A DNA stretch of 64,000 nt from an uncultured Buttiauxella sp. (GTDB lineage: Bacteria; Pseudomonadota; Gammaproteobacteria; Enterobacterales; Enterobacteriaceae): assembly GCA_946480445.1 (NCBI GenBank), contig CAMLJN010000007.1, positions 1 to 64,000 of the forward strand, written 5' to 3'. Of this stretch, positions 34,322-43,205 are shown piece by piece. How positions within the stretch are numbered: the stretch's first letter is position 1; every line of letters starts with the position of its first letter. Both the position numbers and the translations under genes were made by a program. Below the pieces are notes generated by a model. That model did no database searches and had not been told where the DNA came from. It saw nothing but the letters and a program-made list of their open reading frames with translations.

Positions 34322-34852
34322 TTAGCGCACGGCCTCAGGCTGGCTCTGCTCTTCATCCATCTTATCCAGACGAGTAAGCTGCTTACGGGTGATGAGTTCC
34401 AGCTGCTCTTTTTCTGAAGCGTTCAGGGAGGACCACAGCTCATGCAGGCAATTATGCTGCGGCGGCAGAACCTGGCGTAAGAAATCGTGCCCTTTTTCGG
34501 TCAGCTGCAGATGCAGACAGCGACGGTCGTTGTCGCTTTCCCGGCGTTCAATCCAGCCGCGTTTCTCCAGCTCATCGGCAATACGGGTCGCATTGGTGCG
34601 TGAGGATCCCAGGGCGCAGCTCAGCTCTGAGGGCTGAATGCTATGGTTTTCCTAGGACTCAAGAGTAATTAACGCCATAAATAACGTTTCGTTAATCCCT
34701 TGAGCTTTCAGCATCTTATTGCGGTTTTCCAGCAGCTTACCCTGCATATGCATGCACAGACGGGTCAGCAGAATTTCCTGATACGGGAAGTCCTGTTGGC
34801 GCTTGGCGCGAAATTTTAGCATTTGTTCAATGGGCGTAAACGAACTATCCAT
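34322..34852 (-). pseudogene. emrR: emrR (mprA) repressor with amber stop at codon 67
   Basis: The MarR-family repressor gene starts at 34852 and matches E. coli EmrR/MprA over 176 codons down to TAA 34322-34324. Codon 67, CAG in the E. coli sequence (Gln in '[15 protein letters not shown]'), is TAG here (34652-34654), a single C-to-T change on the coding strand. The rest of the frame is intact, with helix-turn-helix '[20 protein letters not shown]' after the stop. The truncated 66-residue product lacks the DNA-binding domain. EmrR represses emrRAB and mcbR-type targets; losing it normally raises EmrAB. The change could be recent, given the clean remaining frame. Confidence 0.93.
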
Positions 34853-34942: not shown

Positions 34943-35539
34943 TTATATCACCATCATGAATTTCCAGGTCAGTCCATAATCCAGGACACCGAGCAGCGTG
35001 GGAAGAATAATGCTGCGCGTTTTGTAAAGCTCAGGCCTGGCACGGCAAAGCCTGTAAGCGTCGGCAGAAAACGTCTGCCGTCGTGCATGATTTCCGGCAA
35101 GCGCAGCCGTCATGGTCGAGGCGCCGAGCCCGGTGCCGCGCACCAGTTTGGCGGTTGCCGCGGGGAAGACTTTGTTCGTCAGCCCAAAAGCCCAGAGGGC
35201 GGTTTTCGTTTTGCTGAGTGTTTTTGCTATGCGGCTACGCAGAGAAGGGCCGTACAGAATGTGGCGCACGTCCATTGCCATTACCGTGAAGGCCGCAACC
35301 CACAGTGAACTTCCGGCTGCCAGCAGTGCGGTAATGACAAACAGGCTGGCGCCAGCGCAAATTATGCAGGAGAAAAACAGACTTTCGAGCGGCGTGAATC
35401 CCAGCTTAGTGGCGTTGAGGCCGAAGGCAAAAGCCACGGGAATATAGCTGATGACAATGAGGAGGCTGTCTCGGAGACCCTCAAGCCAGATGGCTTCGCT
35501 TTGGTGATTTACAGGGGCAACTGTCGCGGGACTATCCAT
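34943..35539 (-). pseudogene. ygaZ: Deletion remnant of ygaZ-ygaH (L-valine exporter)
   Basis: The frame from 35539 encodes about 135 residues that match the start of YgaZ (AzlC family, 'VISYIPVAFAFGLNATKLGF' and 'AMDVRHILYGPSLRSRI'). It then passes into sequence from the YgaH end: '[19 protein letters not shown]' in another frame and, after a one-base loss near 35025, '[19 protein letters not shown]' in the first frame. So the last ~110 residues of YgaZ and the first half of YgaH are deleted, with further frame damage. YgaZH exports branched-chain amino acids in E. coli. The surviving 198-codon ORF is a chance fusion and is unlikely to work. Confidence 0.85.
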
Positions 35540-36840: not shown

Positions 36841-37252
36841 TCTTATCTTCTGCTTGTAATGAGGAAGCGAGAATAATAACGAAAATTAATGAATGCAGGC
36901 ATCGGATTGTGCGGTCGGGAAGCAAGCCAGCCCGTGGGGAGGTAAGAGGGAGAGGAATTTACTTAACCGTCAAAGCTTCTTTCACCCGGCCGTTAAACCG
37001 CGTCTGATGCGTTTTGATTCAGCCGTCTATGTCACCGGTAGCTATGCGGGCCTACATACTTTTTGCTGTCAGGATGATTTGCCCCCATACCCTGATTATC
37101 ACAGGATGGGGGCCGGGGTGTCACTGTCAGCAATAGCTGATTGATTAACTCGTCATCTGATGTTGAACACAGAAGAGTAAGGCCATTACGCCGAAGGGGT
37201 CATGGCCACTCGGGGACAAAATCACCGTCAACAGGACTCAGGACTCTCGGGA
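36841..37252. other. Gap right of ygaY, with proX remnant and hairpins
   Basis: It contains the proX 3' remnant (36959-37050), a hairpin with CCCCCAT/ATGGGGG arms (37082-37112) and a second imperfect hairpin (37176-37213, GGCCAT/ATGGCC) just after the ubiquitin-like gene that could end its transcript. No other gene is seen. Confidence 0.6.
36959..37050 (-). pseudogene. Decayed second copy of the proX 3' end
   Basis: On the minus strand this reads H-I-D-G-stop-I-K-T-H-Q-T-R-F-N-G-R-V-K-E-A-L-T-V-K-stop. It parallels the end of ProX, '[20 protein letters not shown]' then 'LAVK'. One Trp codon has become TGA and another Arg. It lies in the same orientation as the real proX end at 38872, 1.9 kb away, making direct repeats that bracket the ubiquitin-like and lipocalin genes. 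Confidence 0.85.
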
Positions 37253-37564
37253 TCAACCCCCTTTCAGTTTCAGTTCCAGTTTTACCACGCTGCCTTCTTT
37301 GATGCCGTAGCTCGCCAGCGTTTTACTGTCTTCCAGCTGAGCATTGTTAAAGAACAGCTTTTGCTGATCGGTAGGAATGCCTACTTTGTCGTCGATTTTG
37401 GTTTTGAGGGTTGAAACGGTGTCGGACGCCTCAACTTGGTAGGCTTGTTTATGCCCTGTAATAGTTACGGTGGATATTTGCATAGCAAAAACCAGCTGCG
37501 GCACCAGCACCAGGGTCGCTAATATTGTCGACAGGATTTTTTTACGATGATGAAGGAAGTTCAT
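37253..37564 (-). CDS. Secreted ubiquitin-like protein ending in Gly-Gly
   Basis: The 103-residue protein starts at 37564 behind CGGAG. The first 27 residues form a signal peptide: basic N terminus 'MNFLHHRKK', hydrophobic core and 'VFA' cleavage site. The mature part begins 'MQISTVTITGHK', is exactly 76 residues and aligns with eukaryotic ubiquitin without a gap; I count 38 of 76 identities. The core 'VGIPTDQQKLFF', 'QLEDSKTLASYGI' and the tail 'LKLKGG' are plain. Lys27, Lys29 and Lys33 are kept, while Lys48 is Ala and Lys63 is Glu. The hydrophobic patch is changed (Ile44 to Phe, Val70 to Glu). There is no E1, E2 or deubiquitinase gene nearby. The protein should be exported to the periplasm or beyond, away from ATP-driven conjugation. 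Function unknown; the secreted Bacteroides fragilis ubiquitin that inhibits rival strains is the closest parallel I know. Confidence 0.9.
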   Translation of the reverse strand: MNFLHHRKKILSTILATLVLVPQLVFAMQISTVTITGHKQAYQVEASDTVSTLKTKIDDKVGIPTDQQKLFFNNAQLEDSKTLASYGIKEGSVVKLELKLKGG

Positions 37565-38374
37565 ATATCTATGCTCCGTAGCTTATCATATTAATAACCC
37601 AACAATTTCAAGCCTCTTTCTGTTGAGTTATTTTATGGGTATGGTGGTTTATATGAATCATGGATTAGATTGCAGTTTTTTAAACTGCCTATGAAGGCTA
37701 GTCCACAGCGAATCGAGCGGCAAGTTTAAAATGACTATTTTTTAGCACGGCGATGTTAAAGAATTAACGACTATCCTCTTTTTTAATATCCATTAAAACG
37801 TTAATCGTTTACTGTGTTTTAATTTTGTAGATAAATTATTCAAATTTAGTGGCAAACAGCTCTGTTCACGCGCGGGATGATTCGCTAAGCAGGCTGAATA
37901 ATGGGCCAGTAAGCGGCCGGGGTTGGTCGGGGCTTTGCAGTGATCTGTTTTTAACTCGTTGATATTTATTATTATACTTGTGGGTGTGACTGTTTTTTGT
38001 TATTGGCATTAAGTTAGCTGCACTGCTTTAAGATAACGATAATTATCAGTCTGTTGTCACAGTGAACCTAAATTGAAAACGGACGTTTGCTAAAGAAATA
38101 ATCATCGTCTAGTTTTATGTTTCTGCCTTGTCTTCGTTGAGGTATCAGTGAAAGCATTTTTGAGAACAGTCCAGCCTTTGCCGGAAAATACGTTTTGCGA
38201 TGCATTGTCTTTTAAATATTTACATATCAAACAGGATGTAAAATATATTCCCCGCTTCGAATGATTATCAGGTGTGTGTATTATATTCACGGATCTGAGA
38301 AAACGTTGTGATGGTGGTGGGTGCCGGTCCCGAACGCGGTGCTTTCCTTATTGAAATCGAATAGGTGACTCTTA
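37565..38374. other. AT-rich 810-bp gap upstream of the ubiquitin-like gene
   Basis: Base composition is clearly more AT-rich than the flanks, with many A/T runs typical of transferred, H-NS-type DNA. A perfect hairpin lies at 37672-37688 (GCAGTTT TTT AAACTGC). A 62-codon minus-strand ORF (38102-38290) has no recognisable family and I do not call it a gene. A short open stretch at 38309-38364 reads 'MVVGAGPERGAFLIEIE' and could be a gene tail. Promoters for the ubiquitin-like and lipocalin genes must lie here. Confidence 0.6.
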
Positions 38375-38806
38375 ATGAAAAATCACTTTCAGGGCAGCTG
38401 GCGCCTGGTCTCATCAAGTTTCAAAACGGCAGAAAATGAAAAATCTTATCCGCTTGGGGAGCGCGTTAGCGGGATTTTGCACTATGACGAATCCGGGCAT
38501 ATGGCGGCGCAGCTTTACGGTGCGGAACGTTCGGCATTTCAGCTTGGGGATCAGACAAGGGGAAGCGATACGGAGATCCGCCAGGCGTTCACTACCTCGC
38601 TGTGCTATTACGGCAGCTATGAAGTGGACGAGACGAACGGGCAGGTTGTTCACCATGTTAAAGGCTGTACCTTCCCAAACTGGGTTGGCCAGCCGCAGGT
38701 AAGGTTCTATCGTTTCGAAGGCGATAATCTGACGCTAACCACGCCGGCGTTTGAAATCGGCGGCACGCTGCAAATCGGTGAGTTGCTCTGGCAGCGTTTA
38801 GCCTGA
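38375..38806 (+). CDS. Lipocalin-like domain protein
   Basis: The 143-residue protein opens 'FQGSWRLVSSSFKTAENEKS' and has the short beta-barrel pattern of the Lipocalin_5-type family: 'GILHYDESGHMAAQLYG', then 'YYGSYEVDETNGQVVHHVKG', 'RFYRFEGDNLTLTTPAF'. No signal peptide is visible, so it is probably cytoplasmic. The start is ATG 38375. It lies divergent from the ubiquitin-like gene across the AT-rich gap. The ligand is unknown. Confidence 0.82.
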   Translation: MKNHFQGSWRLVSSSFKTAENEKSYPLGERVSGILHYDESGHMAAQLYGAERSAFQLGDQTRGSDTEIRQAFTTSLCYYGSYEVDETNGQVVHHVKGCTFPNWVGQPQVRFYRFEGDNLTLTTPAFEIGGTLQIGELLWQRLA

Positions 38807-38815
38807 GGGAAAAGC

Positions 38816-38848
38816 AACGCCCCCCGCAGGGCCTGCGGGGGGCGTTTT
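38816..38848. terminator. Bidirectional terminator between lipocalin gene and proX
   Basis: AACGCCCCCCGCAGG and its complement form a 15-bp GC-rich stem with a one-base nominal gap, followed by TTTT. Confidence 0.88.
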
Positions 38849-38871
38849 ATCTTTCTGAAAGGTTCGTCGTG

Positions 38872-39864
38872 TTACTTAACCGCCAAAGCCTCATTCACCC
38901 AGCCGTCGAACTGTGCCTGGTGAGCTTTGATCCAGCCGTCTACGTGGCCCTGAATCGCGGCTTCGGAAGCGTGGCCGTTATGCATCATGGCGTTCTGAGC
39001 GTTGATATCCGCCAGTGGCAGCTTCATCAGGCTAAACAGTTTCGCCGCCTGCGGGTTTTTCTGCGCCCAGGCTTTGTTTGCCACGATATGCATAGTGTTC
39101 ACCGGGAAACCATAGTTGGCACCGTTCGGCAGCTTAGTATCAATATCCTTCTGCTCACCCGGCAGGGAGGAGAACGGGACTTGTAACCAGACCACATCTT
39201 TCCCCGGCTTAAGCAAATCGCTTACCCAGTACGGCGTCCAGGTGTAATACAGCACCGGTTTGCCTTCTTTAAAGCGAGCGATGGTTTCAGCCATCATTGC
39301 TGAATAGTTACCGTGGTTCACGGTGACGGTATCCGCAAGCTTATAGGCTTCGTTCTGGTGGTTGATTACCGCTTCGCAGCCCCAGCCTGGGGTGCAGCCC
39401 ATCATGTCGGCTTTTCCGTCGCCGTTGCTGTCAAAGAGTTTGGCGATCTTCGGGTCTTTTAGCTGTTCAACGTTGGTGATGTGATAGCGATCGGCAGTTT
39501 TCTTGTCAATCAGATACCCCTGGGCGGCACCGGTAACAAATACCCCCTCGCGATAAAACTTCTTGTCGCCGCCGGCTGCGGCATACATATCGTCATGCAG
39601 CGGCTGCCAGTTGACGGCGGTAAAAGTGGCATCGCCAGAGGCAATTGAGGTGTAGCCCACGTTGTAATCCACTTCGCTCGGTTTGTTGACCGTGTAACCC
39701 AGTTTTTCAAGCGCGCGGCTGACCAGCTGTGTCTGGAAGGTTTCTTCAGAAATGGTGCTTTGCACCGGCTGTACGGTAATGCCTTTACCCGGCAGGTCTG
39801 CCGCAAAGGTGCTGGTGGTAACGAGTGTGGCAAAGGCCGTAGCCAGAATAGCTGTATGTCGCAT
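38872..39864 (-). CDS. proX: Glycine betaine-binding protein ProX
   Basis: The start at 39864 ('[14 protein letters not shown]') gives 330 residues with a signal peptide cleaved after 'TFA'. The mature protein matches E. coli ProX, including betaine-binding Trp-containing stretches '[13 protein letters not shown]', '[12 protein letters not shown]' and '[11 protein letters not shown]'. It delivers glycine betaine or proline betaine from the periplasm to ProWV. Last gene of the proVWX osmoprotectant operon. A decayed copy of its 3' end lies at 36959-37050. Confidence 0.97.
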
Positions 39865-42453: not shown

Positions 42454-43205
42454 TTACAAAATATAAGTCAAATTGATGGCGGCGGTAGGGTTGCATTTAA
42501 TTAGCCATTTGGCTTTATCTTGCAGGTCCTTATTTTCGGGCCTGGCCCGCATTGCGGCGACGATATTCTCCAGCGCTTCCTGCGCATTAAATGGGTCAGG
42601 ATCGGCATAGAGCCGGGGCTTATCGCTGTGGATAAACTGCGCGGGAATGCGGCGATTCATGGCGCTGTCTGGCCGCCTTTTTCTCCCCTGACTACCAGAC
42701 AATACTGGCTGTCTGGACATCATCCCGGGTACCGTGATTGTTACGGGCCTTATCTTCCTTAAATCCCTGGGGGCTGGTGGTGAGCCAGAGATAATAATCG
42801 CGATACCCCTGACGAATATTTCGGTAGCTTACATTATCGAGCTTTCCGCTATTGTGTAATAACGCCACGACGTCAATTATTTTAATCAGCATGCGCCCGT
42901 CGGGAATACCGCTGTCGCGTACGGATTTTTCACCCGGAATACGTTGTGCCGAGGTTAGATTCGGGTACATACGCGTAGCGGGAACAATAAACCAGTTTGC
43001 CAGTTGTGAGCGCGCTTTTTCGGCATAGGTATTATTCCCGGAAAGCTGCCGGGCAAGGGTTAAATTCCAGACATCGCGGGGGAAATTATTCAGCTGAGAT
43101 TTGTCGCTTTGCGCGCCACTGGCCGCAGGATTCATTTCGCCGTCCCGGCGCTGCTAAGCAGCAGCGCCAACAGGTGTATCAGACTGCTGGCCATCGGCAC
43201 CTTAA
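42454..43205 (-). pseudogene. Alginate-lyase-like gene, broken by frameshifts and deletion
   Basis: A minus-strand segment (43135-42692) encodes the middle of an alginate lyase-family (PL5/PL7-like alpha barrel) protein, with 'LANWFIVPATRMYPNLTSAQ', 'LLHNSGKL' and the conserved 'NNHGT' motif. It ends at a TAG soon after. The C-terminal part continues in another frame at 42723-42454. Upstream, a signal-peptide-like frame ('MASSLIHLLALLLSSAGTAK', 43200-43141) ends in TGA and is out of frame with the middle part, which lacks the usual N-terminal ~100 residues. The gene has thus lost its 5' part and gained at least two frame breaks. Confidence 0.75.

What the first reader, a model, noticed from the sequence alone, without database searches (positions are those of the whole stretch)
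37253..37564. Secreted ubiquitin homologue with exact 76-residue mature form and Gly-Gly end
Bacterial ubiquitin-like proteins usually occur in operons with E1/E2/peptidase genes, are cytoplasmic, and align poorly. This one has a signal peptide whose predicted cleavage after VFA leaves Met1 of ubiquitin, aligns to eukaryotic ubiquitin over all 76 residues without gaps (I count 38 identities by eye) and keeps the LKLKGG end followed at once by a stop. Lys48 and Lys63 are lost and the Ile44 patch is altered (Ile44Phe, Val70Glu). No conjugation genes are near. Export argues against use as a conjugated tag inside the bacterium. It could be an antagonistic toxin, as reported for a secreted Bacteroides fragilis ubiquitin, or a factor aimed at host ubiquitin machinery.
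Basis: partly seen in the sequence, partly recalled or inferred. Interest (0 to 1): 0.95.

Follow-up and report, generated by a model that had tools for sequence, protein, structure and literature searches.

The report
Exported ubiquitin in an enterobacterium
A bacterium carries a gene for ubiquitin, the protein tag of animal and plant cells, with an export signal fused exactly in front; the protein is predicted to leave the cell interior and likely acts against rival bacteria, and similar signal-bearing ubiquitins sit in other bacteria and on phage DNA.

Summary
The ORF (37253-37564, minus strand) encodes 103 residues: a Sec-type signal peptide (rule-based prediction) ending VFA, then a gap-free 76-residue ubiquitin, 38 of 76 identical to human, ending LKLKGG-stop. 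Close relatives are rare: three protein clusters, one labelled Serratia fonticola; 1 of 392 genomes of the same family (its own) has it. It lies with a lipocalin-like gene in a 1.8-kb insertion, absent from 5 of 5 congeners and flanked by a decayed copy of the proX 3' end.

Signal peptides ending just before ubiquitin Met1 occur in Ruminococcus albus, Pseudoalteromonas, a genome of the same class and on phage contigs, where the ubiquitin is free or runs on into other parts (IPTL-CTERM, fn3, autotransporter barrel). One phage contig (L066) repeats the window's layout: signal peptide, 76-residue ubiquitin, Gly-Gly, stop.

Best explanation (0.4): a mobile, exported antagonist working like B. fragilis BfUbb. 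The Gly-Gly end, absent from BfUbb, keeps a host-directed use open. New variant of a known kind.

The parts
37253..37564 (-). Whole gene: signal peptide plus 76-residue ubiquitin, 103 aa and stop
   Evidence: Translation; PF00240 69.6 bits; relatives P0002-P0004
37484..37564 (-). Predicted Sec signal peptide, residues 1-27, ending VFA
   Evidence: n-, h- and c-regions by rule; 22 of 27 residues invariant in the alignment of four
37256..37483 (-). Predicted mature ubiquitin, residues Met1-Gly76
   Evidence: 38 of 76 identical to human ubiquitin, no gaps
37256..37261 (-). C-terminal Gly75-Gly76 codons, directly before the stop
   Evidence: kept in P0001-P0004
37574..37577 (-). GGAG, likely ribosome-binding site, 9 bases before the ATG
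   Evidence: Read
37565..38374 (.). 810-bp AT-rich spacer (38% GC) between two divergent genes
   Evidence: a promoter-like match at 37657-37630 on the minus strand is weak evidence
38375..38806 (+). Lipocalin-like gene (PF13924), divergent neighbour in the same insertion
   Evidence: 126.4 bits; found in 1 of 24 genomes searched, the own one
37033..38871 (.). 1,839-bp insertion absent from 5 of 5 congeners
36959..37032 (-). Decayed copy of the last 74 bp of proX, with an in-frame stop
   Evidence: 81% identical to the intact end
38872..38945 (-). Intact 3' end of proX, the other side of the insertion

Best explanation
The gene encodes a ubiquitin with a signal peptide fused exactly before Met1; it is predicted to be exported through the Sec pathway, trimmed to a free 76-residue ubiquitin, and likely to work as a secreted antagonist that binds an envelope protein of related bacteria, much as B. 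fragilis BfUbb inhibits its rivals. Shown: the ORF, its layout, its rarity, the two-gene insertion, and the same signal-peptide-to-Met1 junction in other bacteria and on phage contigs. Inferred: export and cleavage, the beta-grasp fold, release from the periplasm (by vesicles or lysis, since no type II secretin was found), and binding to a bacterial rather than a eukaryotic partner. The last is inferred because the face that eukaryotic ubiquitin partners use is rebuilt (Phe or Ser at 44, Lys68, Glu70). On this reading the Gly-Gly tail is a flexible end and not a conjugation handle.
For: Same layout as BfUbb, a 27-aa signal sequence then 76 aa, which inhibits B. fragilis strains as a synthetic 76-aa protein and seems to need no immunity gene (PMC5705921). 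Patchy occurrence in a small insertion, as expected of a competition factor: 1 of 6 genomes of the genus, 1 of 392 of the family, absent at the site in 5 of 5 congeners. The Ile44 patch is rebuilt and not kept among relatives (44 is F, F or S; 70 is E). No dedicated E1 seen. Related signal-bearing ubiquitins ride on phage contigs and run on into an IPTL-CTERM motif or an autotransporter barrel, which points to use outside the cell.
Against: No activity, export or target was tested. The Gly-Gly tail, absent from BfUbb, is kept in all four relatives and needs no explanation under a conjugation model. No type II secretin was found among three secretins, so crossing the outer membrane is unexplained. 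BfUbb is from another phylum and is closer to human ubiquitin (63% identical) than this protein (50%), so the same use cannot be assumed.
Confidence: 0.4

Rival explanations
1. A host-directed ubiquitin: the exported protein would reach an animal, plant or protist cell and enter or jam its ubiquitin machinery, for example by being activated by E1 and ending chains, since Lys48 and Lys63 are gone.
For: Gly75-Gly76 kept in four of four relatives with Lys or Arg at 72 and 74. The genome holds a SPI-2-like type III locus, so contact with eukaryotic cells is plausible. BfUbb bound human E1 and inhibited ubiquitination in vitro (PMC3352274). Phage contig L060 carries an exported free ubiquitin 72 of 76 identical to human with the RGG end.
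Against: Positions 44, 68, 70 and 72, which E1 and most ubiquitin receptors contact (recalled), are changed, and 44 varies among relatives. Tail conservation is good but not exceptional (5, 6 and 5 of 71 windows score as high, the tail included). A Sec signal does not give entry into a host cell.
Confidence: 0.25
2. A resident envelope or surface ligand without toxicity: the ubiquitin fold is used as a stable binding domain in the periplasm or on the surface, for adhesion, regulation or protection.
For: Other signal-bearing ubiquitins continue into surface-type parts: autotransporter barrel (L075, 63.4 bits, cut-off 26), IPTL-CTERM (P0010, L057, L050), a very long Ig-like protein (Pseudoalteromonas).
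Against: The window protein and L060 are free, with no anchor.
Confidence: 0.2
3. A phage-derived accessory gene that protects the cell, for example by blocking entry of other phages at the envelope, now stranded in the chromosome.
For: Signal-bearing ubiquitins lie beside terminase, head, tape-measure and tail-fibre genes on IMG/VR contigs.
Against: The insertion holds no phage gene or integrase among its two genes; PHROGs gives only a marginal match for the ubiquitin (E 0.01) and none for the lipocalin-like protein; phage records gave no match.
Confidence: 0.1
4. A horizontally acquired gene with no function, drifting.
For: Strong divergence from ubiquitin and a decayed proX stub next to it.
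Against: Frame, signal peptide, junction and GG end are kept among relatives only 83-85% identical.
Confidence: 0.05

Closest known systems
BfUbb, the secreted ubiquitin of Bacteroides fragilis (PMC3352274 parts 1-3 of 4; PMC5705921 parts 1-3 of 6)
   Same: Signal peptide ending just before Met1, 76-residue ubiquitin, patchy presence in a species, no conjugation partners.
   Different: BfUbb is 63% identical to human ubiquitin and lacks the terminal glycines; here identity is 50% and Gly-Gly is kept. BfUbb's secretion and toxicity are shown by experiment; here neither was tested.
Signal-bearing free ubiquitin on phage contig L060/L066 (IMGVR_UViG_3300021559_000195; found here)
   Same: Signal peptide, 76 residues from Met1, Gly-Gly, stop.
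   Different: 72 of 76 identical to human and on a phage-like contig; the window gene is 38 of 76 and in a chromosome.
Ruminococcus albus pRUMAL01 ubiquitin family protein (P0013)
   Same: Signal peptide ending ANA just before MQIF.
   Different: Ubiquitin runs on into a longer protein (246 aa); no Gly-Gly end.
Operon-type bacterial ubiquitin-like conjugation systems (recalled; PMC10097602 seen only in a listing)
   Same: Ubiquitin-like fold with a C-terminal glycine.
   Different: Here no E1, E2 or peptidase gene is adjacent and the protein carries an export signal.
Secreted ubiquitin effector of plant-parasitic nematodes (as described in PMC5705921)
   Same: Signal peptide in front of ubiquitin, acting outside the producer.
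   Different: Eukaryotic, has a C-terminal extension, aimed at plants.

Membership tests
Ubiquitin family (PF00240) | Profile match over the curated cut-off | tested here: met
   69.6 bits against 25.4
Ubiquitin family (PF00240) | 76 residues ending Gly-Gly | tested here: met
Ubiquitin family (PF00240) | Beta-grasp fold | not tested
   Predictor failed, then was switched off; inferred from gap-free identity to solved ubiquitins
Ubiquitin family (PF00240) | Activation by E1 and conjugation | not testable with these tools
   Needs a bench assay
BfUbb-type secreted ubiquitin | Signal peptidase I type signal ending directly before Met1 | tested here: met
   By the (-3,-1) rule and region make-up; cleavage not shown
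BfUbb-type secreted ubiquitin | C terminus without the two glycines | tested here: not met
   Ends LKLKGG; P0002-P0004 end KGG or RGG
BfUbb-type secreted ubiquitin | Found in culture supernatant | not testable with these tools
   Needs a bench assay
BfUbb-type secreted ubiquitin | Inhibits related strains | not testable with these tools
   Needs a bench assay
Operon-type bacterial ubiquitin-like conjugation | E1, E2 or peptidase gene beside it | tested here: not met
   Neighbours are MFS, lipocalin-like and proX genes; the three ThiF-family genes lie elsewhere; the E2 search had a silent control
Phage accessory gene in a prophage | Phage genes or an integrase in the same insertion | tested here: not met
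   The insertion holds two genes; PHROGs match for the ubiquitin only marginal (E 0.01), none for the lipocalin-like protein

The most novel reading that the evidence does not exclude
Exported ubiquitin is a recurrent mobile module of bacteria and their phages: ubiquitin moved out of the cytoplasm and released or displayed through Sec alone, IPTL-CTERM anchors or autotransporter barrels. The window gene and phage contig L066 carry its free form with the conjugation tail intact, a ubiquitin made by bacteria to be used by, or against, other cells.
Probability: 0.35. Interest if true: 0.9.

Novelty: new variant of a known kind. Interest (0 to 1): 0.75.

Why it matters
In the papers I could read, BfUbb is the one bacterial ubiquitin shown to act as a toxin. 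A second free form in a distant phylum, with the Gly-Gly end intact, plus a set of signal-bearing ubiquitins with surface-type tails and on phage contigs, makes it testable whether ubiquitin has been reused repeatedly as an extracellular ligand, and whether the tail matters once the protein has left the cell.

Tried and rejected
Considered and rejected: a cytoplasmic conjugated tag (signal peptide, no dedicated E1 seen); eukaryotic contamination (184-kb contig, shared flanks); a common enterobacterial gene (1 of 392; with PF00240, 10 of 295 genomes matched at E 0.001 but only the own one over the cut-off, the other nine being partial matches in frames of 104-110 aa).

Led nowhere: scans of genome contigs with P0001 and P0004 and of viral contigs with P0001 and A1; the insertion in E. 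coli and plasmid records; phage records; NCBIfam, where only rad23 matched, far below its cut-off; PADLOC; papers on Serratia ubiquitin. P0001 found one plasmid record, R. albus. The lipocalin-like protein has relatives on 95 plasmid records, all under 60% identity, one 80% database relative (P0016), and told nothing about function. The DNA around P0003 and P0004 could not be fetched, so synteny and dN/dS are open. No tool named the organism; 'enterobacterium' is my inference from gene order (recalled), NCBIfam hits and the Serratia fonticola label of P0004.

A cyclophilin-type PPIase gene lies about 1.8 kb from the ubiquitin gene on L066. I recall, from no call, that a PPIase was reported as BfUbb's target (Jiang et al., Nat Microbiol; only the reference entry was seen). 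One case; a lead only.

Full report
Observation. The ORF at 37253-37564 on the minus strand encodes 103 residues. Residues 1-27 have the n-, h- and c-regions of a Sec signal peptide and end VFA; residues 28-103 align to ubiquitin from Met1 to Gly76 without gaps, 38 of 76 identical. PF00240 scores 69.6 bits, cut-off 25.4. A GGAG lies 9 bases before the ATG (read). The export call is rule-based; no signal-peptide predictor was at hand, and structure prediction failed and was then switched off.

Relatives. A search of 5.8 billion proteins gave three clusters, P0002 (99%, possibly holding the window's own protein), P0003 (85%) and P0004 (83%, 'ubiquitin-like protein [Serratia fonticola]') among 10 candidates; the search needs shared 5-residue words, so more distant ones can be missed. 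All keep the signal peptide, the A|M junction and Gly-Gly. A search with their alignment added eight proteins at 44-51% identity. In whole genomes the gene is in 1 of 6 of the genus and 1 of 392 of the family. With PF00240, 1 of 295 genomes of the family, 2 of 369 of the class and 2 of 398 of the phylum are over the cut-off, the own genome being one each time. The other phylum hit (G814) starts at Met without a signal peptide.

Setting. In 5 of 5 congeners the MFS gene is followed by proX after about 135 to 350 bp; in the window the distance is 2,031 bp. The extra 1,839 bp (37033-38871) hold the ubiquitin gene, an 810-bp spacer of 38% GC and a divergent lipocalin-like gene (PF13924) found in 1 of 24 genomes searched, the own one. 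On one side lies a 74-bp stub of the proX 3' end, 81% identical to the intact end on the other side. The stub keeps the reading frame but holds a stop, and the intact end is closer to the congeners (63-66 of 74) than the stub (53-61). No integrase was seen among the ORFs of the insertion.

Partners and routes. The genome's three ThiF-family genes lie beside thi, moeA-like and csd-like genes (names from recalled gene order). E2 (PF00179) gave none, but the control genomes gave none either. Three secretins were found: a SPI-2-like SctC with SctD, an SseB-like protein and a two-component pair (SsrA/SsrB by recall); one in what I read as a Tad-type pilus locus; and one over the PilQ cut-off and just under the HofQ cut-offs. 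None reaches the GspD cut-off. So there is no sign of type II secretion, and passage through the outer membrane is unexplained.

Surface. Sixteen of 76 positions vary among P0001, P0003 and P0004; 26 are fixed but unlike human ubiquitin; 34 are as in human ubiquitin. Position 44 is F, F or S and position 70 is E, so the Ile44 patch that eukaryotic partners use (recalled) is not kept. Lys6, 11, 48 and 63 are lost; Lys27 and 29 remain. The tail keeps Leu71, Leu73, Gly75 and Gly76 with Lys or Arg at 72 and 74; by BLOSUM62 it ranks among the better-kept stretches but is not exceptional (5, 6 and 5 of 71 windows score as high or higher, the tail itself included).

A wider set of signal-bearing ubiquitins. 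Ruminococcus albus pRUMAL01 encodes ...ANA|MQIF...; clusters P0010 and P0011 have ...AFA|MQIF... (P0011's end departs from ubiquitin near residue 64); Pseudoalteromonas shioyasakiensis SDCH90 has ...ILA|MPIT... at the start of a very long Ig-like protein, and strain A316 has a similar match in a long gene that I did not translate; a genome of the same class (G545, L050) has ...AHA|MQIF..., then fn3 and IPTL-CTERM. In viral contigs a scan with P0010 gave 10 loci, 5 with a signal-peptide-like stretch right before Met1 and 5 without; a later scan with alignment A3 gave 19 loci, 7 with (L076=L060, L078-L080=L056-L058, L082=L059, L083=L075, L084) and 12 without. L057/L071 lies beside terminase and virion genes. 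L075 lies between head-protease and tape-measure genes and continues into an autotransporter barrel (63.4 bits, cut-off 26); L074 has the same layout with a sub-cut-off barrel (24.6 bits) beside a ParB-like methyltransferase. L060/L066 is free: 108 aa, mature part 72 of 76 identical to human, ending RGG-stop, on a contig with tail-fibre and DarA_N genes. That is the window's layout in a near-canonical ubiquitin. Export of all of these is predicted from sequence by eye, not shown.

Function. BfUbb, read in PMC5705921 (parts 1-3 of 6) and PMC3352274 (parts 1-3 of 4), has the same layout, is secreted, inhibits B. fragilis strains as a synthetic 76-aa protein, and bound human E1 in vitro; it lacks Gly-Gly. 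By anatomy and patchy occurrence the window protein most likely works like BfUbb (0.4). It is not filed as a member: its C terminus differs, and secretion and toxicity are untested. A host-directed role (0.25) is kept alive by the Gly-Gly tail and the SPI-2-like locus, and weakened by the rebuilt patch.

Extracellular ubiquitin elsewhere. A review (PMC10892293, passages only) lists antimicrobial activity of ubiquitin and its fragments and disputed binding to CXCR4; both are compatible with, but no evidence for, a role of this protein outside the cell.

Literature. Searches for Serratia or exported bacterial ubiquitins listed no description of this gene or of phage-borne exported ubiquitins in the held open-access library;'s 48 papers only 20 were listed,'s 13 only 10, and most subscription papers are not held.

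Noticed in passing
L066:4811-5137, L071:1985-2431, L074:7950-8891, L075:7986-9431: Ubiquitins with a predicted signal peptide on phage-like IMG/VR contigs: free with Gly-Gly end, with IPTL-CTERM, or with an autotransporter barrel.
   Followed up: partly
L066:2471-3007: A cyclophilin-type PPIase gene (PF00160) about 1.8 kb from the free ubiquitin gene on the same phage contig; a PPIase is, by recall only, the reported target of BfUbb.
   Followed up: no
L050:229-1191: Signal peptide, ubiquitin, fn3 and IPTL-CTERM in one protein of a genome of the same class, beside a glycosyl hydrolase family 3 gene.
   Followed up: partly
L045 (own genome, contig C19): SPI-2-like type III secretion locus (SctC, SctD, SseB-like, two-component pair) with a Fic-domain-like gene nearby.
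   Followed up: partly
window 35098-35142: About 475 bp that 5 of 5 congeners have here is missing from the window, in a gene I take for ygaZ/azlC (recalled).
   Followed up: no
window 42454-43135: Truncated alginate-lyase-like gene (PF05426, profile positions 47-181 of 275) between proV and nrdF.
   Followed up: no
window 34652-34852: A 66-aa ORF beside emrA that looks like the start of an MprA/EmrR-type regulator (recalled), shorter than I recall for that protein; no Pfam match.
   Followed up: no
L054:1495-2274: Another bacterial ubiquitin-domain protein (G814), without a signal peptide and with an unidentified C-terminal part.
   Followed up: no
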